Shown here one piece after another: positions 15,116-57,625 of a stretch of DNA of 64,000 nucleotides; position 1 is the first letter of the stretch; each line of letters starts with the position of its first letter. Under the pieces are notes generated by a model that made no database searches, had not been told where the DNA came from, and saw nothing but the letters and a program-made list of their open reading frames with translations. Location of the stretch: positions 58,587,071-58,651,070 of the forward strand of contig OY755241.1 in the NCBI GenBank assembly GCA_963576725.1, written 5' to 3'. A program made the translations under genes and the position numbers. This DNA comes from Azorinus chamasolen. Its lineage: Eukaryota; Mollusca; Bivalvia; Cardiida; Solecurtidae.

Positions 15116-15368
15116 AAGATACTAAGAACGCCATAATTTAAACATTTAACAATATTATATAAGAAACGAACTAGAATTGTTTTTGTAGTGTGTGATCAAA
15201 CTTTTCCAAAGTCCCAAAACTGCAGAATATGAAACGGAAATAACTATACACAACTAGGCATGGTGCTGATCAATCAATCCTATGAAGTTTCGAAACAAAC
15301 CTGTTCCATGTAAAACTTTCAAAGTCCAATAACTCTGCAGAAAATCCTATAAACCTTAATGAATATAA
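15116..15368. other. no gene seen; fragment of a core repeat
   Basis: Contains cactaggcatggtgctgatc and gaaacaaacctgttccatgtaaa, words also present at 61,060-61,300, so part of it is a pearl-like core repeat. Confidence 0.45.
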
Positions 15369-15584
15369 ATTCTGAAGGGTGGTGATCCCCCGAAAGCAAA
15401 GATTGCAACACAAAAAGAGAAAATTGCAGACTCGGTTTTATTGAGTCTGTCCATGAGCAGTAATTCAAAGTGCAACACTGCTCACGCCCCCTATCACCGG
15501 CATAAGCGGTATTCAATTTTCAGAACAACAAGTACTGAAATTCATGATCTCGAAGGATCAGAAGGTATAACAACACTGAGAATA
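15369..15584 (-). repeat. ~205-bp interspersed repeat X, copy 1
   Basis: Edges: ttctgaagggtggtgatccccc at the constant end; gaaggtataacaacactgag at the variable end. Inside is a stem-loop agactcgg-ttttatt-gagtct and ctcacgccccctatcaccgg. Full or partial copies lie at 42,117-42,308, 42,386-42,589, 47,890-48,076 and 49,317-49,520, with a diverged relative near 20,027-20,160. One end is fixed while the other varies between copies, as expected of a 5'-truncated retroposed element whose 3' end is the ttctgaaggg side (hence the minus strand). The overlapping open frames are artefacts. Confidence 0.7.
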
Positions 15585-19240: not shown

Positions 19241-20020
19241 TGTTTTGGACCGTTGCAGAAGATCTATGACTGAATGTCACAAACTCATGCGTAACTGTCA
19301 GCAAACAGTTATTACTAGGTTTGATGTTGCCGCTGTTGCATCCAAAGCACGCATTACTGCACTTTCAATAGCAAACTTACCATCAGCATTATCCAAAATG
19401 GTATTTACCCCTTTAATAAAAATACCATACATTTGCACCATCTCAGCCTTTCAAGAGCCTATTGTCAGTGAAGAGGCATGCAATACAGTTTCTGATGTCA
19501 CTGAAAATGTCACAAACCTTAGTACCAATAGTCTCGCCAATTGTGCAAAATCGTACTATCAACATTCAGAATAGTGTATTTATCAATAAACACGTCCACA
19601 ACAGCACGAAAAAACAACGAGAAGTAACCATCAGTGGACTTGTTTCAGATAAGGAGATAACACAAGCCTCAATAATTAATGAGATGGAAAGAAATGATGC
19701 AAAGAAATGAGAGTCGGAAAAAAAGGTAAAAAGGGTTGTCAAAAAGAATGCAAACTGTATCCCGAAAAGTAATGAATGGTGCTTCACGGCCCATCGACAC
19801 TGATGGTCATATAGAGCCGAATAAATAATGTAAATAAATCTATATGATGAAATCAAATAACGACAATCGAAAAGTAAATATTTCACAATGTGAACAAAGT
19901 ACTTCAGGTCATCCCTCATCAAAGCCCAGTCATATCATATCCTATACAATGCAAGTGATTGTTGTGAGACCAAGGTACTCAGAAGAAATGATACATTTAT
20001 TAGCAATATGAAGAGAAAAT
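19241..20020. other. no supported gene
   Basis: Overlapping open frames (19,233-19,574, 19,462-19,710, 19,566-19,922 minus) share no recognisable domain or clear splice context. The S/T- and N-rich reading around 19,440-19,560 could be debris of a retroelement 5' region; I cannot support more. Confidence 0.35.
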
Positions 20021-20026
20021 AGAAGA

Positions 20027-20165
20027 CTCGGTTTTAATGAGTCTTCATAAGCAGTTCACTTACCACGCCCACTGGCACTGGCTTTTAAACAAACAGCGGT
20101 GTTCAAATTTCATTGTTAACAGCATTGAAACTGTGACGATCCTCATAATCTAGTTCAGGAAATAT
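20027..20165. repeat. diverged relative of repeat X
   Basis: Shares agactcggttttaatgagtc, ttcataagcag, cacgccca, agcggtgttcaa and tttca in the same order as repeat X, but is clearly older. Confidence 0.45.
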
Positions 20166-42064: not shown

Positions 42065-42308
42065 ATCTTGTGTGGCGGCCGTGAAGCGTCGCCCCATGCT
42101 TCATTCTCAGTTTTGTTATACCTTCTAATCCTTCGAGATCATGAATTTCAGTACTTCTTGTTCTGAAAAGTGAATACCGGTAATAGGGGGCGTGAACAGT
42201 GTTGCACTTTCAATTACTGTTCATGAACAGACTCAATAAAAACGAGTCTGCAATTATCTCTTTTGTTGCAATTTTTGCGCTCGGGGAATCACCTCCTTTC
42301 AGAATTTA
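42065..42308 (+). repeat. repeat X, long copy
   Basis: It extends beyond the core of other copies with cttgtgtggcggccgtgaagc...ttcattctcag, so this is nearer full length. The 3' edge is ggggaatcacctcctttcag. Confidence 0.65.
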
Positions 42309-42334
42309 TAATCTTCACAACAACAGGTGTTAAG

Positions 42335-42589
42335 TGCTTGTGTGGCGGCCGTGAAGCATCGCCCTGTACTTCATTCTCAGTGTTGTTATACCTTCTAATC
42401 AGTCGAGATCATGCATTTCAGTACTTCTTGTTCTGAAAATTGAATACCGCTTAAGCCGGTGCTAGGGGGCGTGAGCAGTGTTGCACTTTCAATTACTGTT
42501 CATGAACACTCAATAAAACCGAGTCTGCAATTTTTTCTTTTGTGTTGCAATGTTTGCTCTCGGGGGATCACCTCCTTTCAGAATTTATT
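42335..42589 (+). repeat. repeat X, second long copy in tandem
   Basis: Same extended 5' part and same orientation as the copy just upstream (26 bp apart). Inner stem-loop intact (cactcaataaaaccgagtct, slightly changed). Confidence 0.65.
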
Positions 42590-47640: not shown

Positions 47641-47889
47641 TAGAATTCAACAGATTGAGTTAAATAATTTGTAAAATATGTGTTCTTTAAAATGCCTTCC
47701 TATGCCTAACGTTGTTTTCGTAGAATAATGTTGGCAATAGATACCTTCCAAAAATGATGGTGTTTTGCCTTTAAAGTTTAACGCTTAGACATATGATACT
47801 GCTATTGTGTTAACATAACTATAAACGTTATGTGGGAATAAACAAACATTGAAGAAACAAACTATGTGTCCATATTACAAGTATATAAT
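47641..47889. other. no gene seen
   Basis: Short AT-rich unique stretch. Confidence 0.5.
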
Positions 47890-48076
47890 AAATTCTGAAG
47901 GGTGGTGATCCCCCGAAAGCAAAAATTGCAACACAAAAAGAGAAAATTGCAGACTCGGTTTTATTGAGTCTGTTCATGAGCAGTAATTGAAAGTGCAACA
48001 CTGCTCACGCCGCCTAGCACCGGCTGAAGCGGTATTCAATTTTCAGAACAAGTACTGAAAATCATGATCTCGAAGG
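47890..48076 (-). repeat. repeat X, copy with truncated 5' part
   Basis: aattctgaagggtggtgatcc at the constant end. The copy stops at atctcgaagg, earlier than the others, as a 5'-truncated copy would. Confidence 0.65.
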
Positions 48077-48103
48077 AAACCAAATGCTAAAAGTCAGAAT
48101 ATA

Positions 48104-48392
48104 AGATTCTATTAGAAATGAAAACAAAAATACTTAATATGCAGCACATTAAGTGTGCTACATAAACTGACATAACCACGGTCTGACTCCATGTCCTGTT
48201 CATCATGGGCTCTGGGCTGTGGACCACCGCCGTCAGATCTTTGACCATTTCTGTCTGTTCGCTGTGTGTGGGATGGTGATGTTTCTGCCTCTGAAAGTGA
48301 AGAGACTAAGTATGCAATGTGGAGCATGTCTATAAAATTGTCATCGTCAGGCACATCTTGTATACAAAAATCTTGGCAGCAGTTACGGGCAG
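48104..48392. other. flank of the viral element, partly duplicated at 58.5 kb
   Basis: gattct.ttagaaatga, acttaatatg.agcacat, agtgtgctacataa.ctga and ccacggtctgactccatg recur at 58,535-58,650. The word tcaggcacatcttgtatac, directly next to the left inverted repeat, resembles tcaggcacatgtgatat at 58,676. A minus-strand open frame (48,112-48,354) has no recognisable domain. This is host sequence next to the insertion. Confidence 0.5.
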
Positions 48393-48493
48393 CAGTTACC
48401 GCTAAAAGTTACCACCACCCACCCTATGTTATACCAGGTCCTTCTGAGAAGCTGGTATTTACACGTTTTAGTGGTAACTGAGTGCACGTGCGT
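48393..48493. repeat. left terminal inverted repeat of the parvovirus-like element, self-folding
   Basis: Pairs imperfectly with 55,721-55,850 in inverted orientation. Shared blocks in order: gcagttaccgc, a taccacc/C-rich block, ..ata...gtcc, gaag, tacacg, agtggtaact and gtgcacgtgcgt. It also folds on itself: cagttaccgctaaaa (48,393-48,407) pairs with ttttagtggtaactg (48,466-48,480), one mismatch, and inside it ataccag pairs with ctggtat (48,431-48,458). Nested terminal hairpins are the replication origins of parvoviruses. Confidence 0.65.
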
Positions 48494-48523
48494 TTTCCCG
48501 CCATTTGAAATTTGGCCAAAAAA

Positions 48524-48590
48524 GTGGAAGCCGCTTAAGCACTGACAAATCATAATTGACTTGTTTTTTCAGTGTTTAAGCGGCTTCCAC
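48524..48590. repeat. strong 22-bp stem-loop near the left end
   Basis: gtggaagccgcttaagcactga and tcagtgtttaagcggcttccac pair in 21 of 22 positions around a 23-base loop. It lies beyond the end of the Rep reading frame, between it and the inverted repeat. Several minus-strand AATAAA signals (tttatt near 48,615 and 48,668) lie between it and the gene. Confidence 0.7.
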
Positions 48591-48707
48591 CTTTTTTCAC
48601 TCTTGTTATATTAACTTTATTCAACATAATAACATATATTAACAACATTTTGATAAAATAACAACATTTATTCATCAAATTTAACATGTTTTAACAATAT
48701 TTTGACA

Positions 48708-49316
48708 TTATTCACTGTTATTGAGCTCTGAACCCATAAGTTCACTGAGTGTCATGTCTATGCTGTTAACAATGAATTTATTAAGAAATTCCTTCAACAT
48801 GCCACTCCATGATGGTTCCCTTTTCAATACCAAATCTATGTATTCACACCACTTTGTCAATGACTCAGCTTCAGTACTGGTGGTGAGCTTACGTAGATTT
48901 CGGTATTGATTGATTTCTTCAATCATTTGTCTCTTGGCTTCCAGATCATACCAAGCGTCATGTTTCAATTGGCTTAGATGCTCTGGGTTTGAGGCACTCA
49001 TTGATTCGATGCAGTCTATAGTGCTGTTGTATTTGTCAGAAATTGTATCAGGTTTTAAATTGACAAAATGTTCAAAGATAGATCCCGATACATGAATAGT
49101 TCCAGATCCATTTGAAGCCTCTGGATCAGGTAATCTGTAAGAGTCTTCAATGTCTGAAGATGAGCTCATATCCATGGTTTCCGGTTGCTTTGTAGATTCT
49201 TCAATCTTTCGCTTTTTGGCAGGTGTACTGGTTGTAGTGATGCCATCATCAAAGGTTTCATTTGATACCATTGTATCAGAGATGGTTCTCTTTACTCCTT
49301 GTCTAAGTTTCTTCTT
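48708..49316 (-). pseudogene. Rep/NS1-like protein, C-terminal region
   Basis: About 202 codons of open frame following the repeat X insertion. It begins with a basic stretch, contains a nuclear-localisation-like TPAKKRKIEE, an S/D/E-rich linker (MSSSSDIEDSYRLPDPE), then a helical charged domain ending GSELNNSE. In parvoviral Rep/NS1 the C-terminal tail is variable and I recognise no family here. The first residues of the apparent ORF (before 49,317) come from repeat X, not the virus. Confidence 0.55.
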
Positions 49317-49520
49317 GAATTCTGAAGGGTGGTGATCCCCCGAAAGCAAAAATTGCAACACAAAAAGAGAAAATTGCAGACTCGGTTTTATTGAGTCTGT
49401 TCATAAGCAGTAATTGAAAGTGCAACACTGCTCACGCCCCCTAGCACCGGCTTAAGCGGTATTCAATTTTCAGAACAAGACGTACTGAAATTCATGATCT
49501 CGAAGGATCAGAAGGTATAA
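49317..49520 (-). mobile_element. repeat X inserted in the Rep/NS1-like gene
   Basis: A nearly intact X core (ttctgaagggtggtgatcc ... gatcagaaggtataa) splits the C-terminal Rep frame, in the same sense as the gene. It matches copies at 15,369 and 47,890 closely, so it is younger than the viral integration. No target duplication was evident. Confidence 0.75.
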
Positions 49521-49773
49521 ATGCTGATGTGTATGTTCCATATATCTGTTCGAACATAGCTTTCAAAATCTTTTTCAAGATGGCTGGAATATTTTGTTTC
49601 AACGTAGGAGCTGTTTCAACATCTGACCAAGACTCAATTGATTTCATCAGCCTTGTGGTACACCATGATTCGGCTCTCATCGTTTGTATTGTGAAATTGT
49701 CAAGCAATTCAATGTCAATTGGCTGGTGGTCTGGTCCGTATAGACGTGGTACTGGTGAGTTTGTGATCACCAA
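49521..49773 (-). pseudogene. Rep/NS1-like protein, segment after the helicase
   Basis: Open for about 84 codons (PRLYGPDHQPIDIELLD, RAESWCTTRLMKSIES, ILKKILKAMFEQIYGTYTS). It overlaps the end of the helicase frame by 7 bases in another phase, consistent with one frameshifted gene, and is cut by repeat X. Confidence 0.5.
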
Positions 49774-51152
49774 TAATAATCACTCGCATCATTCATGGTA
49801 GCCAACTTCAGGTATTGTTTGATGACTGTCACAGTTTGATATTTGCTCTTTGTACGGAAGTCCGTATCTATGGTCTCCGTATATCTGGCAGATGTTGTGT
49901 TGGATTCCCAGGTTACGTCAACATCTGACCAGATATTGCTGATGAGTCCTGGCTGTCTTTGTGCCATCAAATGGATGTGGGATTGAATCATCTCTGAGTC
50001 AAAGTCTTTGATAAGTTCATCACTTGGCCAGTCTTGCTCTTTCCTGAGACATTGATCGATATAATTAAATATCTCCTGCCAAAAGCGCGGATCTGGAGCA
50101 CCAACATTGGATAGAACTTTGCTTTCAATTAAGCCTGTTCTGAGAAACATCCTGTTACGGAATGCCTTAGCTTCGTTTTCAAAACATCTCCAAGGCATTG
50201 CGTTACAGGACATGACGATCGGAGTTCTCTTCATCATTGTGAGATCCTTGTTTTTAATATTTACAGTTGTGTCAATTCCTTCGAAGATCTTTTTTGCCTC
50301 CTCGACCTGCTCGGGCTTAACAAGGGTTAATTCTGGAATATGGACAATCTCCTTGTTAATGCATTTCGACCAGGCAAAATCCGTAGAAATGACTGTTTGA
50401 CCAACAACATCACTGAAAGACAGCACCGAATTAATCCAATAAGTTTTCCCGGCATTGGATGCGCCGACCAGTGCAAAGGTATTCTTTTTAGGATACACCT
50501 TATCCAAAATGCAGAATAGGTCATGGCAGAATTCTCCAGCTTCAATGTTCTGCTCGACGCACCAATCCAGGAAAACTTTGGCCGTTTTGCTGACTGACAT
50601 GGTATCTGGTAAAGCAGGGCAGCTTTCCATCAAGTGAGTGGCATAGTTGTGGCCTTTCAATTCTTTTTCAATTTTAACTTCTTCCATTGCTTGTTGCCAA
50701 AGTTTACTGAAGAAAGTTGTGGTAGTGATACTTCTCCAAGTATCAAGTTCCTGGCGATTTCCATTCTTCATAATGCTCTGAAGTATGTCTGATTGGTTGT
50801 TGCAACCGTATTTGTTTACAAATTGTTTGATCTGGGTAACCTTGTCTGCTAGTTTCGACTTGTAATAAACAATGTCACCGCTGTCGAAATCCTGAGAATC
50901 CTTCCCCTGAGCGTCGCTCATAATTCTCCTGGCAGTCAAAGTTTTCCTTTTTTCTTGATTTGGGTTATATTGAATAGATTCTTCAATGAAAGATGGTTGT
51001 TCTGGCTGATTTTCCTCATCTTCAATAGCATCAGCATAGGATTTGGTCTCCAACATGGTTGACTGTTTTGGGTCATCAATTGCTATTCTTTTCATACGGC
51101 TACAGAGTGCTATGTTATTACAGCCTAGCAATTTTCTTGGTTCTGTTGTCAT
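49767..51152 (-). pseudogene. parvovirus-like Rep/NS1, SF3 helicase domain
   Basis: ATG at 51,152; 461 codons. The ATPase has Walker A GASNAGKT (residues ~230-237), a Walker B-like IVHIPELTL (~271-279) whose acidic residue is the Glu in PEL, a K/G region and a sensor-1 SCNAMPW (Asn ~317). Order and spacing match the superfamily 3 helicase of parvoviral NS1/Rep, which unwinds DNA during rolling-hairpin replication. The domain itself is uninterrupted. The HUH nuclease that should precede it lies immediately upstream in other frames, so the ATG is a convenience start. A cellular role is possible but nothing here shows it. Confidence 0.8.
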
Positions 51153-51159
51153 GTGTCTC

Positions 51160-51676
51160 AAAATACTATGTATTTCACTTTCTGGTATTTGGTGCTAGCA
51201 TGTTGCCTGGTTACTATGCTTTTTAAGTTTCTATACCGTGTATTATCATGCAGCCTGTACCCATTTTGGGATATAAGATGCATGTGCAGGCCATTAAACT
51301 GACACCCAGCATCACACATCCCATTATGCCATATAGCGACTGTAGGTCGTGAATTGATAAACTGCTTAATGCTATTGCAGAGATCTCTTTGTTTGTCTGT
51401 TTGACTGTTGAATAATTCGATTGGAGTCGAAAAGCTGATGACTGGATTATATCAACCATACAATTATATTCATCCTGAGTAACATATTTGCCGTATGGTG
51501 TTCCTTTTTCTGATTTTTTTTATTTTTCCTTCATCATCATACACATATGTTCTTGGTTTTAAACATTTCACAAGATCATGGTCAACTGGAAAATCACCTA
51601 TGATGCTGTAATATTCTTGTGATTTGAATGCGAAATCTAAGATTTCCTCAGGCTTAAGCTGATGACCTTTATTCAT
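51160..51676 (-). pseudogene. Rep/NS1-like N-terminal HUH endonuclease, frameshifted
   Basis: Three frames carry consecutive parts. 51,676 down to about 51,500 starts at an ATG (MNKGHQLKPEEILDFAF, DFPVDHDLVKCLKP). 51,470-51,330 continues (VDIIQSSAFRLQSNYS). About 51,330-51,165 holds CQFNGLHMHLIS, a His-hydrophobic-His motif of HUH nucleases (~51,275-51,292), followed by KYQKVKYI, where the catalytic Tyr is expected. At least two frameshifts and a stop separate these from the helicase, so the gene is dead. Confidence 0.65.
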
Positions 51677-51942
51677 CCTGAAAATAATTATTCAGGATTG
51701 TTAACCAAGTCCGTGTATCCAAATGGATGTTTACCAGTACTATATTGCATTTTTAAAGTATCTTTATTTTTTATTAATTCATTGACTCTGGTATCTAATT
51801 TAGAAAACATATATGCTGTATGCTGAGTTCTTCCTCTCTTTGTATAATTTTGTTTTTGATAATTTAACAGCAGATTGGATTTTTTTTATCGAGACAGTCA
51901 TTTATTGTAGAGTTATAGCTACTTATTAATGATTTAAATGTG
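51677..51942 (-). pseudogene. broken continuation of a coiled-coil frame
   Basis: Past the stop at 51,943 the minus strand shows short K/N/Q-rich readings in changing frames. The change follows a tandem duplication, cattaatatgacacatttaaat (repeated about 51,928-51,967), which itself creates the stop. Insufficient for a domain call. Confidence 0.35.
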
Positions 51943-52098
51943 TCATATTAATGATTTAAATGTGTCATTTTGTAATTGTATCATCTGATTTACATATGTT
52001 CTTGTTGCACTATTTATAGAAGTTTGTGAAGACGATTGCGGTGTTGAGCCTTTCAATTCTGCAACTTGATTGTTTAAAGTCTGTATTTCTGTCGCCAT
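51943..52098 (-). pseudogene. short coiled-coil ORF truncated by a 22-bp duplication
   Basis: ATG start; reads MATEIQTLNNQVAELKGS, an S/T/Q linker, then YVNQMIQLQNDTFKSLI and a TGA. The first part has heptad spacing. It sits between the larger coiled-coil ORF (4 bases away) and the Rep genes. Confidence 0.45.
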
Positions 52099-52101
52099 TT
52101 T

Positions 52102-52437
52102 TTAAGAGCCATCTATAGCTAATATAACTCCTGCATTATGATTTATGGTATTCGTGGTTCTACTATTATCTGCCTTAATTTCTGAGATATCCTGGTGAAT
52201 GTCATGTATATCAGTTTTCACTAAATTTATATTATCATTTAATGTGTCTGTGTATTTATACAAGTTTGTTACTCTGGGACTTATTAATGATTTATATTGT
52301 GTCAAATCTTGTGTATTTGTAAGAACAGAGCCTTGTAATTTTGTTATGGCCGATTCTAATGTATCTAAATCTGAATATGTTGAGGTACCTGTTTCAAGTT
52401 GAGAAAGTCTATACATTATGAACTCTACATCTGACAT
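52102..52437 (-). CDS. 111-residue coiled-coil protein of the viral element
   Basis: ATG start; the frame is also open upstream (AYQDETHRYQLIEAELDWRK), so the real start could be earlier. Heptad-rich for most of its length (LESAITKLQGSVLTN, LNDNINLVKTDIHDIHQDIS). No family recognised. Coiled-coil fibre-like or scaffold roles are possible but unproven. Confidence 0.5.
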   Translation of the reverse strand: MSDVEFIMYRLSQLETGTSTYSDLDTLESAITKLQGSVLTNTQDLTQYKSLISPRVTNLYKYTDTLNDNINLVKTDIHDIHQDISEIKADNSRTTNTINHNAGVILAIDGS

Positions 52438-52561
52438 TCGTTTTCTCCAATCTAATTCTGCTTCAATTAATTGATATCTGTGTGTTTCGTCTTGATATGC
52501 GTCCTGTTATGTTTTGTCTTGTGGCTTTACCGTTTCTCGTTAGATGGTGTTTGATGCGGTG

Positions 52562-52807
52562 TCATTCCGTGTGTGGCTCTCCCTGTTTGACTATTTTTCC
52601 ATAATTAATAGCATATAGACATACTGGAAAGCCAGGTAGAGATTTAATACTGTTATTATAAGCAAAAAATTCTGTAACAGGTACATTATTATTGAAATCT
52701 GTTCTTGTATTTATTGTTAAATCAGTCTTTTTTGAAAATTTTATAGTATTCGATACTTCTGTTATCCAATATCTATTGTCAGCAAATACATATGGGGTAT
52801 CTGCCAT
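52562..52807 (-). CDS. 81-residue ORF of the viral element
   Basis: ATG start; MADTPYVFADNRYWITEV, then VPVTEFFAYNNSIKSLPGFP. Rich in aromatic and polar residues, like a small beta-rich structural protein. Starts 11 bases after the preceding ORF; its stop overlaps a further ATG (ATGA). Function unknown. Confidence 0.5.
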   Translation of the reverse strand: MADTPYVFADNRYWITEVSNTIKFSKKTDLTINTRTDFNNNVPVTEFFAYNNSIKSLPGFPVCLYAINYGKIVKQGEPHTE

Positions 52808-52818
52808 TAATACAACTA

Positions 52819-53364
52819 TTATGACGTTTGATCCTCTAGGTTCCCATGATGATGGAAATTCGTAAAATGTTCTATATAAATACCCATAAATGATGTGCTT
52901 GAATCTATAGCATGTAGTTCCTTGTATAAGTTAACTTTAAAATCAGCATAATCTTGAGTTACCCATTCAAAATCATTGGTTGGCTGTATCATATCAATCA
53001 TCTTAGGTAAAGCTAAACAAAATTGATATTTGTATTTATTATATTGCATCGGATTAAGAAAAAAATAAGAAAGAGACGTCTCCGAATCAATTTCAACCGA
53101 TTCTCTAGATCCTGTACCATCTTGCGTAGGATAGCTCGGCATGAGATTTGTAGTAACATTCTGTTTAATGAAATCATTTAAAAACGTATCTCTATTGTTT
53201 AATTTTAATAATAATTTAATATATAATAAATCTTTTGGGTAACCATTCAATGCTAAATTATGAACACTAATACAATTATCTACAATATGTTCTAAAGGCA
53301 CGAACCTATGCGATGTTGAGGTATTTGATGTACCCGCCATTGCGACACCTCCTGGATTAGCCAT
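52819..53364 (-). CDS. 181-residue ORF of the viral element
   Basis: ATG at 53,364; begins MANPGGVAMAGTSNTSTSH, then FVPLEHIVDNCISVHNLAL, and later FLNPMQYNKYKYQFCLALPK. The N-terminal G/A/S/T-rich leader resembles virion-protein arms. No known domain recognised. Intact frame, compactly placed (16 bases after the previous ORF), suggesting a structural operon-like block. Confidence 0.5.
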   Translation of the reverse strand: MANPGGVAMAGTSNTSTSHRFVPLEHIVDNCISVHNLALNGYPKDLLYIKLLLKLNNRDTFLNDFIKQNVTTNLMPSYPTQDGTGSRESVEIDSETSLSYFFLNPMQYNKYKYQFCLALPKMIDMIQPTNDFEWVTQDYADFKVNLYKELHAIDSSTSFMGIYIEHFTNFHHHGNLEDQTS

Positions 53365-53380
53365 CTACCAATTCTGTTCT

Positions 53381-53785
53381 TTAATGGTTTTGCCTGGGTC
53401 TTTTGCTTGGTGAAGGACCGTACTCCTCGAATAGATCTATTTGCGAACCAATATCCTGGGCAGTCGTTTGTCTTTCGGTTGGCGGTAATGCCGGGCCTAC
53501 TTTCGCTCCAACAACCTGAATGGGTGTAGTAAGAGTAGTCCGAGTGTAACTTTTCAATGGCGTTTTAAAGCTACCTTTACCACCCAATACTACAGTAGTT
53601 TTTCTGTTACTTGCTTCTAATAAATCGGTTATTTTTTCTTTATTTAATAATTTTAATGCGTGTATGTCCTGTACTGCAACTAGGTTTTGTCCTATAGTCC
53701 AAGATATAGGATATCCACCTAATTTAGGCCAGGGTATGAATCTTCTGTTTTTATTTGAATATATAGGGGGTTGAGTAACTCCCAT
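53381..53785 (-). CDS. 134-residue ORF of the viral element
   Basis: First ATG at 53,785 (MGVTQPPIYSNKNRRFIPWP). The frame opens a little upstream and overlaps the capsid-like stop codon at 53,818. The C-terminus is basic and may be a nuclear signal (PSPSKRPRQNH). No family recognised. It could be expressed by reinitiation after the capsid gene or be the shifted C-terminus of the capsid-like protein. Confidence 0.5.
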   Translation of the reverse strand: MGVTQPPIYSNKNRRFIPWPKLGGYPISWTIGQNLVAVQDIHALKLLNKEKITDLLEASNRKTTVVLGGKGSFKTPLKSYTRTTLTTPIQVVGAKVGPALPPTERQTTAQDIGSQIDLFEEYGPSPSKRPRQNH

Positions 53786-53817
53786 AGCTTTCCATAATTG
53801 TGCTGGTCTAAAATATC

Positions 53818-55378
53818 TCAAGTTTCTGGTTCTGGTTCGCCCATTTCATTTTGAGTTGACTGTACGGGTAAAGTCGGATTATCGCTAGAATCAACTATCA
53901 TATTATTTTCTATCTTATATTGGGTGGCACCGGTAGGTTCGTTATAGACCATTTCTGTATTCATATCATCTAAAACAGTCTGAGTTAAGCCGGCCTGTTT
54001 TAAAATGGCGTCATTATGCATCGGATCTGCCTTTTGCCCAGCTATAGGATCTAATGCGTCTGTGGAAAGTACTGTAACAGGCTTCGATTTGTCTTTGGCT
54101 AACTCGGGCTCTGTTATAGTATAGCCTTTATTTGCCAAATCTGTTTGAGTTTTAGATTGTAATTTCTCATCATCATTTTCGTCTTTATCTGGTATATCCG
54201 GTTTGTTAAAATTTAAATTTTGCTGAGATTGTTTTTCAGAAAAGAAATACGCAGTCATAGGCATCACAAAATCATCAGGTCTGCAGCCCCAAGCAAAACG
54301 TTTAGGGTCTGCTGCGGCACAGTCATAAGGATCACTATAAGGGGCATTTAACCTTTGACCTTGGTCCCCTAACATAAACATATTTATTTTGGGGTCTGGA
54401 GAGAAATAAAAATCAATTTCTGTAGTATAAGTTGCTTTAAACTGTGCTCTTCTTTGAGCCTTGCCTGGTGCTGTATAGAAAGGAGTAAACCTAACAAATA
54501 CTGGTGGTGCTGGGTATATATGTTTTCTATTTTGTTGAGTAGCCATATTGGCTTGAATGCCCCATACTGAATCTAATATTTTGTTACATAAAACTAATTT
54601 ATTTTTGTTACATGGCAAGTCCACCATTTCATGAAAAGATACACAAGGTATTCTACGAGAGTCTATGTTATGTTCTCTATAAAAAGTTTCTCCAGGGTGT
54701 AAGGTGGAAACGGTTAACAAACCATTGTAGGGATCAAATGCAGTCATTTTGTAGTCTCTCAACATTTCATTTTTTGTACTTTGATACATTTCTGGGTCAA
54801 ATTGTATTTTAGCTCTAGGTAACATGCCATATTCTACGGTATCCGGTTCACATAACCTATAGCCATAATTAATTTCGAATAAAGATCTAGTACCTATAGG
54901 CTTAACATTATGAGGTCTTATAAAATTATTTTTATCTTCAAAAACCTCAATGCTATCAGCCTGAATTGTAGATACGATTCTACCATCTGACTGTATTTCA
55001 TCTCTACTGCATATAATATCAGACAAAGTAACAGTATGTTTCAACATCTTAAACGAATTAGCCGTTATCATATATTTCCATAAATGTGTTGGCTTAACGC
55101 TTGCTTTACTAAAAGCGAAAGGTAATATGCTTGCTCCCCAATCATATGCAAAACAATTTATTATCAGCATTCGACTCAATTGACACGCCTTCAGCGCTAG
55201 TCCCTGGTCCCAGAAAATGAGTATAAGTTCTACTAAAAGTAACATGTTTAGACTTAGCAGAACATTGTTGCTTTGAATAATTGCTAAAAATACCTGGCCC
55301 ATTAGAAGCTCCTTGACCATAACCCAAGTCCTCTTGCTCATTTGTATTAGCTGACAACGTAGCAGCTTCTGTAGCCAT
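53818..55378 (-). pseudogene. parvovirus-like capsid (VP) gene, one frameshift
   Basis: ATG at 55,378 with a G/A/S/N-rich start (LGYGQGASNGPGIFSNYS) followed by VTFSRTYTHFLGPGTS, which recalls the glycine-rich arm and first beta strand of densovirus capsids. The frame then fails near 55,145-55,180 and continues in another phase (WGASILPFAFSKASVKPT, then SFKMLKHTVTLSDII). Later words PPVFVRFTPFYTAPGKAQ and ATYTTEIDFYFSPDPK resemble the last strands of the parvoviral jelly roll. The final ~150 residues are acidic and Q/T-rich. Product would be the icosahedral shell protein. The jelly-roll call is from pattern, not a structure search. Confidence 0.6.
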
Positions 55379-55511
55379 AATAAACTATTAAATGACAAAA
55401 GATAACTTCGTTTTTCTGTTTTCCTCTTCGGTTCTGACTGAATTTTGAACTGATGCACGTATTTCACTAAGTATGTTCCGTTTACACGAATATAACCCAT
55501 ATGTCCATAAA

Positions 55512-55622
55512 TCACTTGGTTTTCCTTTTCCTCCTCCTTCCTAATCCTAATAATTCAATTAATTTATCCAGCAAATAGCGAACAAGCAAGTTTAATAATA
55601 AAACTATGGCAGAATCTGACAT
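55512..55622 (-). CDS. 36-residue leader ORF upstream of the capsid gene
   Basis: ATG at 55,622; a leucine-rich hydrophobic/amphipathic helix (IVLLLNLLVRYLLDKLIELL) followed by a basic tail (GRRRKRKTK). It would be the first ORF after the TATA-like box. Too short for statistical support; could be a small membrane-active or nuclear protein, or a leader peptide. Confidence 0.3.
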   Translation of the reverse strand: MSDSAIVLLLNLLVRYLLDKLIELLGLGRRRKRKTK

Positions 55623-55680
55623 ACGCAGCCGATTCACATGAGAAAGTGTTTCAGAATGTTTGAAAATAACGGCTAAACCG

Positions 55681-55688
55681 CTTATATA
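55681..55688 (-). promoter_or_regulatory. TATA-like box of the viral element
   Basis: Minus-strand TATATAAG, about 60 bases upstream of the first ORF at 55,622 and 300 bases upstream of the capsid-like ATG, just inside the right inverted repeat where a parvoviral promoter would be expected. Confidence 0.45.
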
Positions 55689-55720
55689 CTTGAAAAATGT
55701 TTGATAAACAATTACGTCAT

Positions 55721-55850
55721 ACGCACGTGCATGACGTCATAAGGTGACGTAGTTACCACTTTTCGTGTATTTCCGCTTTCCCACCTTCTTGTTCGGACGT
55801 TATACAGTCATCGGGGGGGGGGGGGTAGCTTAAGGTAGGCGGTAACTGCG
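55721..55850. repeat. right terminal inverted repeat of the parvovirus-like element
   Basis: Inverted, imperfect match to 48,393-48,493 (see there). It contains agttaccact (55,751-55,760) and gcggtaactgc (55,839-55,849), which can pair with each other as a terminal hairpin, and a run of about twelve G. The outer tgcgtgcgg and inner acgcacgtgcat are also shared. Confidence 0.6.
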
Positions 55851-56600
55851 TGCGGACGCATAGTCCCGAAGGGGTCCCCTACGGGCAGGTTATCAAGGTT
55901 TTGCCGAACTAGAACTGTAAGTCAAAGGCTAAATAATACCTCCCACCTTGCTGCTTGTCAGAATGTCTATATCAATCTGAACATATGTACATACAGAATT
56001 TGAGAAACATGTAGAAATTTAAAAACAATACATGCCCCAACCCAAGTTATGCAATAACAAGAGTGTTCAAATGGAACACATGTGTCACCTGCTTGCAGCT
56101 GACACAAAACCTGTTAATATGCTGGAGTGCGAAAATCAGAACAAAGGGGAACAAGTTAATGTTGTATTGCTATGTAATACACGAGTCCCCACCCGGATTA
56201 AAAGAAACATCCACTGACCGATCCACCTATGGTGTAGTTGACAATGGTATATACATGACAAACCTGAATGGTATTTGTAAAAATGATAAGAAAAACAATA
56301 TGAAAAAGGGAAATAACTCCAAATATAATGATGCCAGATTTATGACCCTTGTGCATTACACTTCCTCTCAGCATGCTTGTTCCATATGTGAAGTTTCAAA
56401 TCAATTGAACCAGTAGATAGATTTATTGTAAGGACATGAAAATGGGGAATAACTCCAAAAATATTGATGCTAGAGTTATGGCCCTTTTGCTTGAAACTTC
56501 CTCTTATCATGCATGTTTAATATATGAAGTTTGAAATCAATTGAACCAGTAGATAAAGTGTAATTGTCCAGACAAAAAAAAACAGGAAAAAGGGGAATAA
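55851..56600 (+). mobile_element. pearl-like element next to the viral element
   Basis: The head agaactgtaagtcaaaggc ... caatctgaacatatgtacat equals the head at 18,042. Then come a second head-like block (acacgagtccccacccgg), C150 cores inverted, and gacaaaaaaaaacaggaaaaagg. No ACGG end was seen before the next array at 56,610. Confidence 0.6.
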
Positions 56601-56607
56601 CTAAAAC

Positions 56608-57625
56608 AAGAGAGTCGTCACGGGTGACAAATGCCCCCAAAGTGTTTGGCACCAAAATGCATTTTGGCGGAGAAACAATACAATGCAATGCAAGGGTCAA
56701 AACTTAGTTAAAAAGGACCCTAAGGCATTCTCAACGTTAAAAAGGATCCTGTTTTGATTGTCAACGTTTAAGGTATAGGAGTTATGCTCTGGACAAGCTT
56801 TTTGTATCTGGTAAGGTATATGAGATATGCTCCGGACTGTAAAATTGAGGTCAAGGTCAGTGATCTGAAAATGGTACACGACTCTCCGCCATCCCAAGAT
56901 GAACTCAAAAACCAATTTGGAATCCGTAGCTGGTAAGGTATAGGAGAAATGCTCCGGATAAGCTTTGTGTAAAATCTAGGTCAAAGGTCAAGGTCGCAGT
57001 GACTTGAAAATGGTACGCGACACACCGTCATCCCAAGATAAACTCACACACCAAATTTGGAATCCGTAGCTGGTAAGGTATAGAAGATATTCTCTGAACA
57101 TCCTTTTTTGTAAAATCGAGGTCGAAGGTCAAGGTCACAGTGACCTGAAAATGGTATGCGACATTCCTCCATCCCAAAATGAACTCACACACCAAATTTG
57201 GAATCCGTAGCTGGTAAAGTATAGGAGATATACTCTGGACAAGCGTTTTGCAGCTGGTAAGGTTTAAGCTTTTTGTAAAATCGAGGTCAAAGGTCAAGGT
57301 CACAGTGACCTTAAAATGATACGTGACACTCCGTCATCCCAAGATGAACTCACATACGAAAGTTTGGATCCGTAGCTGGTAAGGTATAGGAGATCTACTC
57401 CGGACAAGCTTTTTGTAAAATCGAGGTCAAAGGTCAAGGTCACAGTGACCTGAAAATGGTACGAGACACTCCGCCATCTCAAGGTGATCTCACACACCAA
57501 ATTTGGAATCCGTATCTGGTAAGGTGTAGGAGATATGCTCTGGACAAGCTTTTTGTAAAATCTGTCAAAGGTCAAGGTCACAGTGATCTGAAAATAGTCC
57601 GCAACACTCCTCCATCCCATTCCAT
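56608..57625 (+). repeat. pearl-like array of ~145-bp cores (family E), about six units
   Basis: It opens acaagagagtcgtcacgggtgac and aaatgcccccaaagtg. Units carry caaatttggaatccgtagc, tggtaaggtataggagat, gacaagctttttgtaaaatc, gaggtcaaaggtcaaggtca and gtgacctgaaaatggtacg. Minus-strand ORFs are in-phase readings. Confidence 0.8.

What the first reader, a model, noticed from the sequence alone, without database searches (positions are those of the whole stretch)
48393..55850. Endogenous parvovirus-like element with capsid-first gene order and a multi-gene middle
Seen: an SF3 helicase with Walker A GASNAGKT, a HUH motif (GLHMHL), a capsid-like ORF and inverted terminal repeats, all on one strand. 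Known: Parvoviridae are 4-6.3 kb with Rep/NS before VP. Here VP comes first, at least four further small ORFs lie between VP and Rep, and the span is about 7.3 kb without the later insertion. Inference: a divergent ssDNA virus lineage, or a rearranged copy of one. This is the strongest candidate for an undescribed system in the window.
Basis: partly seen in the sequence, partly recalled or inferred. Interest (0 to 1): 0.9.

Follow-up and report, generated by a model that had tools for sequence, protein, structure and literature searches.

The report
Capsid-first parvovirus fossil with extra genes
An animal genome, likely a mollusc's, carries a broken copy of a parvovirus-related virus that is longer than the usual range for parvoviruses and has its shell gene before its replication gene, with what look like three extra genes between them; the virus likely copied its DNA from hairpin ends, as parvoviruses do, and points to a little-described branch of small DNA viruses.

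The parts
55744..55853 (-). right end of the element (5' end of the coding strand): terminal inverted repeat, about 110 nt
   Evidence: local alignment with the reverse complement of 48389-48487; 0 of 2000 dinucleotide shuffles reach the score; but this end folds hardly better than shuffles (z -1.23)
55512..55622 (-). 36-aa ORF, hydrophobic stretch followed by RRRKRK; uncertain gene
   Evidence: its frame does not score best for codon usage; too short to judge
55142..55378 (-). capsid gene VP, N-terminal piece (78 aa)
   Evidence: 42.7% identity to P0002 residues 1-75, E 7.5e-17; 52% to P0011, E 1.9e-21
53818..55146 (-). capsid gene VP, main piece (part of the 578-aa stop-to-stop ORF 53818-55554)
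   Evidence: 12 relatives, best E 4e-119; relative P0002 is predicted to have the parvovirus VP fold
   Evidence: 38.8% identity to P0002 residues 512-630, E 7.7e-25
52819..53364 (-). predicted gene X, first piece (181-aa ORF, starts 16 nt after VP ends)
   Evidence: codon usage as VP/NS1, best of six frames; no relative in 5.8 billion proteins at E<=0.01 or in IMG/VR
52562..52930 (-). predicted gene X, second piece (122-aa ORF in another frame)
   Evidence: codon usage best of six frames for 52562-52858; that it belongs to X is inferred
52102..52506 (-). predicted gene Y1, coiled-coil-like protein (134-aa ORF; first ATG at 52437)
   Evidence: heptad contrast reached by 3 of 200 shuffles; weak matches to coiled-coil-like profiles, all under curated cut-offs; codon usage best of six frames
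51943..52098 (-). predicted gene Y2, first piece (51 aa)
   Evidence: ATG 3 nt after the Y1 stop; codon usage tied with an antisense frame
51688..51885 (-). predicted gene Y2, second piece (65-aa ORF)
   Evidence: codon usage best of six frames; heptad contrast reached by 7 of 200 shuffles; that it belongs to Y2 is inferred
51470..51676 (-). NS1 gene, N-terminal piece
   Evidence: ATG 11 nt after the Y2 stop; a tblastn match of P0014 reaches 51655 at 25% identity
51158..51451 (-). NS1 gene, piece with the HUH motif GLHMHL
   Evidence: 33% identity over 93 aa to P0014 (E 2.4e-18) and 34% over 91 aa to P0019 (E 1.3e-17), both of which run on into the helicase
49767..51194 (-). NS1 gene, SF3 helicase piece (Walker A GASNAGKT)
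   Evidence: Pfam Parvo_NS1 4.1e-13; 9 relatives; profile matches AAV Rep40 at 1.4e-9
49492..49779 (-). NS1 gene, probable piece after the helicase
   Evidence: position; weak match to P0021, E 0.034
49318..49507 (+). later insertion: 190-bp host repeat inside the probable NS1 tail
   Evidence: 96.3% identical to 47888-48078; further copies at 15365-15557, 42403-42588, 42129-42309
48708..49316 (-). probable NS1 C-terminal tail (202 aa of ORF 48708-49400)
   Evidence: length only: relative P0013 runs 278 aa past its helicase match, the window about 290 aa without the repeat; no significant sequence match
48518..48596 (.). long hairpin next to the left end (35-nt arms, 89% complementary, 9-nt loop)
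   Evidence: the 241-nt stretch that holds it and the left end folds at z -6.5, 0 of 200 shuffles
48389..48487 (-). left end of the element (3' end of the coding strand): terminal inverted repeat with palindrome arms 48393-48407 / 48466-48480

Best explanation
The minus strand from 55853 to 48389 holds one broken copy of a parvovirus-related virus, with the capsid reading frames first, predicted genes X, Y1 and Y2 next and the NS1 replicase last, between inverted terminal repeats, and the virus likely replicated its DNA by rolling-hairpin copying from those ends. Shown: one-strand order, tight spacing, capsid and helicase homology, HUH motif, inverted ends, frame breaks in VP and NS1, and a 190-bp host repeat near the NS1 end. 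Inferred: NS1 would nick the terminal hairpins with its HUH nuclease and unwind with its SF3 helicase; VP would build a jelly-roll shell; X and the coiled-coil-like Y1 and Y2 would be accessory virion or surface proteins (the kind Buck et al. call Cah); the larger genome would make room for them. The copy most likely integrated end to end and then decayed; VP and NS1 are broken (shown against relatives), X and Y2 probably so.
Against: The structure models are weak overall (mean pLDDT 46.6 and 55.0), and the HUH part was not covered by the PDB rows (spans mainly 310-582). The column where P0019 has a candidate catalytic Tyr holds His in the window, P0014 and P0016 (alignment A5), so nicking is unproven. 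The right end folds hardly better than shuffles (21 of 200 as good). Against random pairs of stretches from the window, another scoring of the ends (31) is above the median (23) but under the 95% point (83), which host repeats inflate. No clear target-site duplication was seen in the end sequences. The codon test also penalised stop codons, which favours open frames, and one NS1 piece (51451-51158) came second in it. X has no relative; Y1 and Y2 were not searched in the protein database. Gene order in relatives is unknown.
Confidence: 0.72

Rival explanations
1. The virus was circular, as Buck et al. suggest for most coiled-coil-bearing large parvoviruses; 'capsid first' is then only where the circle opened, at the intergenic origin between the NS1 end and the VP start, and the usual NS1-then-VP order is kept around the circle.
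For: Preprint text: most members of the group 'may have circular genomes' (PMC11071296); the element's ends lie exactly between the NS1 end and the VP start.
Against: Both ends carry inverted versions of one ~100-nt sequence (inverted score 25; direct 15, within its null maximum of 18), and the left one has its own palindrome, as in linear parvoviruses. A single cut in a circle would not by itself give two such ends.
Confidence: 0.2
2. A rearranged copy of an ordinary NS-VP parvovirus, shuffled during or after integration.
For: Endogenous copies are often rearranged (general knowledge); the copy is visibly damaged.
Against: The VP-X-Y1-Y2-NS1 joints are as tight as native viral gene borders, one strand throughout, and the inverted ends lie outside both VP and NS1.
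Confidence: 0.1
3. A bidnavirus-like element.
For: Bidnaviruses share the SF3 helicase and jelly-roll capsid; one protein named Bidnaviridae is among the 50 BFVD rows shown for NS1 (rank 35).
Against: Bidnaviruses lack the nuclease domain, have inverted repeats without hairpins and carry PolB (PMC4061559 passages); here HUH is present and there is no PolB match among 10 ORFs and no ORF over 578 aa.
Confidence: 0.03
4. VP and NS1 are two independent insertions.
Against: Tight head-to-tail joints and shared ends.
Confidence: 0.02

Closest known systems
Large 'Cah-bearing' parvoviruses of Buck et al. 2024 (preprint PMC11071296; passages, section 13 and figure legends read)
   Same: Parvovirus-type NS1 and VP, genome over 5 kb, additional predicted coiled-coil protein(s)
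   Different: Theirs are said to be mostly circular; this copy has inverted hairpin-like ends. Their gene order is not given in the text read, so it could not be compared
Parvoviridae (Parvovirinae, Densovirinae, Hamaparvovirinae)
   Same: SF3 helicase of the Parvo_NS1 family, HUH motif, VP fold, inverted hairpin-like ends
   Different: About 7.3 kb without the later repeat against a stated 3.9-6.3 kb; VP before NS1 on one strand; about three extra middle genes; no PLA2-type motif HDxxY in VP or its 12 relatives
Penaeus monodon metallodensovirus (Metalloincertoparvovirus; PMC11357303 section 6.1 read)
   Same: Divergent parvovirus outside the three subfamilies, described as having a unique genome organisation and up to eight gene products
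   Different: 4,374 nt; its gene order is not given in the section read, so it was not compared; its capsid is among the structural matches
Unclassified 'parvoviridae sp.' from bird cloacal swabs (Dai et al. 2023, PMC9896142; outline, passages and section 14 read)
   Same: The best BFVD matches of both VP and NS1 carry such names; that they come from this paper is inferred from the names
   Different: Abstract says two major genes and genome organisation like most Parvoviridae
Uncharacterised mollusc parvovirus lineages (PMC5013282; passages read)
   Same: Parvovirus-like sequences from marine molluscs that branch outside known genera
   Different: No gene order given in the passages read
Bidnaviridae
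   Same: SF3 helicase and jelly-roll capsid of parvovirus origin
   Different: PolB, no nuclease domain, no hairpins, two segments (PMC4061559 passages)

Membership tests
Parvoviridae | large NS1 with SF3 helicase of the Parvo_NS1 family | tested here: met
   Pfam 4.1e-13; 10 of 10 aligned members
Parvoviridae | N-terminal HUH nicking nuclease in NS1 | tested here: inconclusive
   HUH motif present in the window piece and in 3 of 9 NS1 relatives, the three whose sequence reaches this region; fold not covered; catalytic Tyr not identified
Parvoviridae | parvovirus jelly-roll capsid protein | tested here: met
   tested on relative P0002, 47% identical; model mean pLDDT 46.6
Parvoviridae | genome of 3.9-6.3 kb (PMC11357303) | tested here: not met
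   7,465 bp between the outer ends, about 7,275 bp without the later repeat. The limit is soft: a 6.5-kb starfish parvo-like virus is reported (PMC6085071 passages)
Parvoviridae | NS genes on the left, VP on the right (PMC11357303) | tested here: not met
   VP precedes NS1 on the same strand
Parvoviridae | palindromic hairpin ends with inverted repeats | tested here: met
   inverted repeat, 0 of 2000 shuffles; palindrome clear at the left end, weak at the right
Parvoviridae | NS1 clusters within a subfamily on a tree | not tested
   no reference NS1 set was fetched; only relatives were compared
Parvoviridae | linear ssDNA in a T=1 particle | not testable with these tools
   integrated copy only
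Bidnaviridae | protein-primed PolB | tested here: not met
   no PolB match among 10 ORFs, no ORF over 578 aa; a second segment cannot be excluded
Bidnaviridae | no nuclease domain in NS1, ends without hairpins (PMC4061559) | tested here: not met
   HUH motif; left-end palindrome
large Cah-bearing parvoviruses (informal, PMC11071296) | parvovirus NS1 and VP, genome over 5 kb | tested here: met
large Cah-bearing parvoviruses (informal, PMC11071296) | predicted coiled-coil (Cah) protein | tested here: inconclusive
   Y1: heptad contrast reached by 3 of 200 shuffles; profile matches under cut-off; no comparison with their sequences
large Cah-bearing parvoviruses (informal, PMC11071296) | circular genome (said of most) | tested here: inconclusive
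   inverted ends argue for a linear form; an integrated copy cannot settle it

The most novel reading that the evidence does not exclude
Molluscs host a family-level lineage of linear, one-strand ssDNA viruses outside Parvoviridae as now defined: capsid first, replicase last, over 7 kb, with three extra virion genes that include a coiled-coil surface fibre, kept between parvovirus-type hairpin ends. It would be the first capsid-first linear parvovirus relative that our literature searches know of, and would show that the small parvovirus plan is not fixed.
Probability: 0.35. Interest if true: 0.75.

Novelty: new variant of a known kind. Interest (0 to 1): 0.55.

Why it matters
A recent review gives NS left, VP right and 3.9-6.3 kb as shared by parvoviruses (PMC11357303). 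A copy with the reverse order, extra genes and hairpin-like ends makes it testable whether the reported large coiled-coil-bearing parvoviruses are linear or circular, and gives VP and NS1 baits for finding living relatives. Nine of 12 VP relatives lie on contigs over 500 kb, so integration may be frequent, though the species behind them are unnamed but for one and some may be copies or alleles of each other.

Tried and rejected
Relatives in DNA collections: IMG/VR scans with VP, helicase, VP alignment, NS1 alignment, X and P0009 matched patterns in 10, 0, 11, 86, 1 and 0 stretches, none confirmed by tblastn; one scan of GTDB contigs with the NS1 alignment matched 145 stretches, none confirmed. 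X in the protein database: 10 candidates, none at E<=0.01. PHROGs, NCBIfam, Rfam at gathering score and a tRNA search gave nothing that explains the element. PDB by sequence: only weak, unrelated matches for VP. Pfam on the 13 VP members: two single weak matches to unrelated families.

NS1 tail: that 48708-49400 is a separate gene was not excluded (searches found no match); it is assigned to NS1 by length and place only. An HDxxY pattern (a PLA2-type motif) occurs once, in that ORF, and is taken as chance. First control of the ends, random pairs of stretches from the window: the ends scored 31, median 23, 95% point 83, maximum 333; host repeats inflate this control, so dinucleotide shuffles were used instead. 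At most the top 50 rows of each fold search were seen.

Papers: PMC11071296 passages, outline, section 13 and figure legends; PMC11357303 passages and sections 1.1 and 6.1; PMC9896142 outline, passages, section 14; PMC5013282, PMC4061559, PMC10267136, PMC6631224, PMC6085071, PMC12451622 passages; all others search listings only. Searches that bear on a printed capsid-first parvovirus; no listing or passage seen describes one, but one search was loose, one search returned unrelated papers, subscription papers and most preprints are not held, and figures could not be seen.
Full report
What is there. The element lies on the minus strand. Reading that strand 5' to 3' (falling window coordinates): a terminal repeat (55853-55744); a doubtful 36-aa ORF; the capsid gene VP in three pieces (55378-55142, 55146-53818, 53845-53381); predicted gene X in two pieces (53364-52819, 52930-52562); Y1 (52506-52102); Y2 in two pieces (52098-51943, 51885-51688); the NS1 gene in several pieces (51676 to about 48708); a 79-nt hairpin (48596-48518); and a terminal repeat (48487-48389). 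The species is not known to me; the only named relative is from the bivalve Mactra antiquata.

Middle genes. The codon test was trained on VP and helicase; stop codons were penalised, which favours open frames, and X1 and X2 were scored up to cut points that I chose in their overlap. X1, X2, Y1 and Y2b each score best of six frames (4 of 4); Y2a ties with an antisense frame; the 36-aa ORF does not score best; of the NS1 pieces not used in training, 51676-51545 and 49316-48708 score best, 51519-51223 narrowly best and 51451-51158 second. X has no relative in 5.8 billion proteins at E<=0.01. Y1 has a heptad signal that 3 of 200 shuffles reach, Y2b 7, X1 60, Y2a 65, the 36-aa ORF 157, X2 176. Y1's profile matches are weak, mostly to coiled-coil-like families, and all under their cut-offs, so they suggest a shape, not a function.

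One unit. X starts 16 nt after the VP stop; the Y1 ORF opens 55 nt after the stop of X2 (its first ATG 124 nt after); Y2 starts 3 nt after the Y1 stop; NS1 starts 11 nt after the Y2b stop. Such borders look native. Therefore the order VP-X-Y1-Y2-NS1 is very likely the virus's own, and the open joint is NS1 end to VP start, where the terminal repeats lie. Of 39 tblastn pieces (E<=1e-3) from the 21 relatives, none lies outside the element.

Ends. 48389-48487 and the reverse complement of 55744-55853 align with score 25; shuffled ends give 11.0 (sd 1.7, maximum 22, 0 of 2000). In direct orientation the score is 15 against a null mean of 10.8 and maximum of 18 in 500 shuffles. A first control with random window pairs was less favourable (31 against a 95% point of 83), because host repeats score high. 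The left end has a palindrome with 15-nt arms at 93%. The stretch 48360-48600 folds far better than shuffles (z -6.5), chiefly through the neighbouring 35-nt hairpin; the right end hardly does (z -1.23, 21 of 200 shuffles as good). No clear target-site duplication was seen.

Decay. VP and NS1 are split between frames, as relatives show; X and Y2 probably too. A 190-bp repeat (49318-49507) sits in the probable NS1 tail; it has four other near-full copies and one partial copy in the window, so it is a host repeat that came later. The ORF at 48708-49400 is most likely the NS1 tail: P0013 runs 278 aa past its helicase match and the window about 290 aa without the repeat, but no sequence match supports it.

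Compared with what is known. A review states that parvovirus genomes are 3.9-6.3 kb with NS on the left and VP on the right, flanked by hairpin ITRs (PMC11357303, section 1.1). The size limit is soft: a near-complete 6.5-kb starfish parvo-like virus is reported (PMC6085071 passages). The same review names one parvovirus with a unique organisation, PmMDV, without giving its order in the section read. The element meets the helicase, capsid and end features and fails size and order, so it works like a parvovirus but is not filed as a member. Bidnaviridae is disfavoured on nuclease, hairpin and PolB features (PMC4061559 passages). The closest description is one paragraph of Buck et al. (PMC11071296): large parvoviruses with candidate coiled-coil proteins, most perhaps circular. 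Whether that group is capsid-first is not stated in the text read. Molluscs were already known to hold parvovirus-like sequences outside known genera (PMC5013282 passages).

Verdict. A real, single, decayed element of a poorly described parvovirus-related lineage, with a very likely native capsid-first order on its coding strand. The gene count is lower than first read. What would raise the interest most is the DNA around its relatives, which these tools did not give.

Noticed in passing
window 47888-48078, 49318-49507, 15365-15557, 42403-42588, 42129-42309, part at 20011-20055: A 190-bp host repeat family on both strands, copies 85-96% identical to the first; possibly a SINE or MITE. One copy sits near the viral NS1 end, another about 310 bp outside the left end.
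   Followed up: partly
window 51924-51967: Exact tandem duplication of 22 bp (two copies), near the place where the Y2 reading frame changes.
   Followed up: no
alignment A5, P0019 LTYLQTPPR; window ORF 49767-51194: The column with Tyr in P0019 is His in the window, P0014 and P0016; if it is the nicking residue, part of the lineage has lost or changed it.
   Followed up: partly
P0010 (VP) and P0014 (NS1): Their longest contigs are listed as 537,008 and 537,061 bases, so close that they may be the same or allelic contigs with VP and NS1 together.
   Followed up: no
window 55512-55622: 36-aa ORF with a hydrophobic stretch and an RRRKRK tail, between the right end and VP; could be a membrane-active peptide or chance.
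   Followed up: partly
window 48708-49400: An HDxxY pattern (KHDAWYD) in the probable NS1 tail, the only one in the three minus-strand frames of the element; probably chance.
   Followed up: no
window 56298-56609 and 56769-56971: Short direct repeats (120 bp at 85%, and 28-38-bp families) just outside the right end of the element.
   Followed up: no
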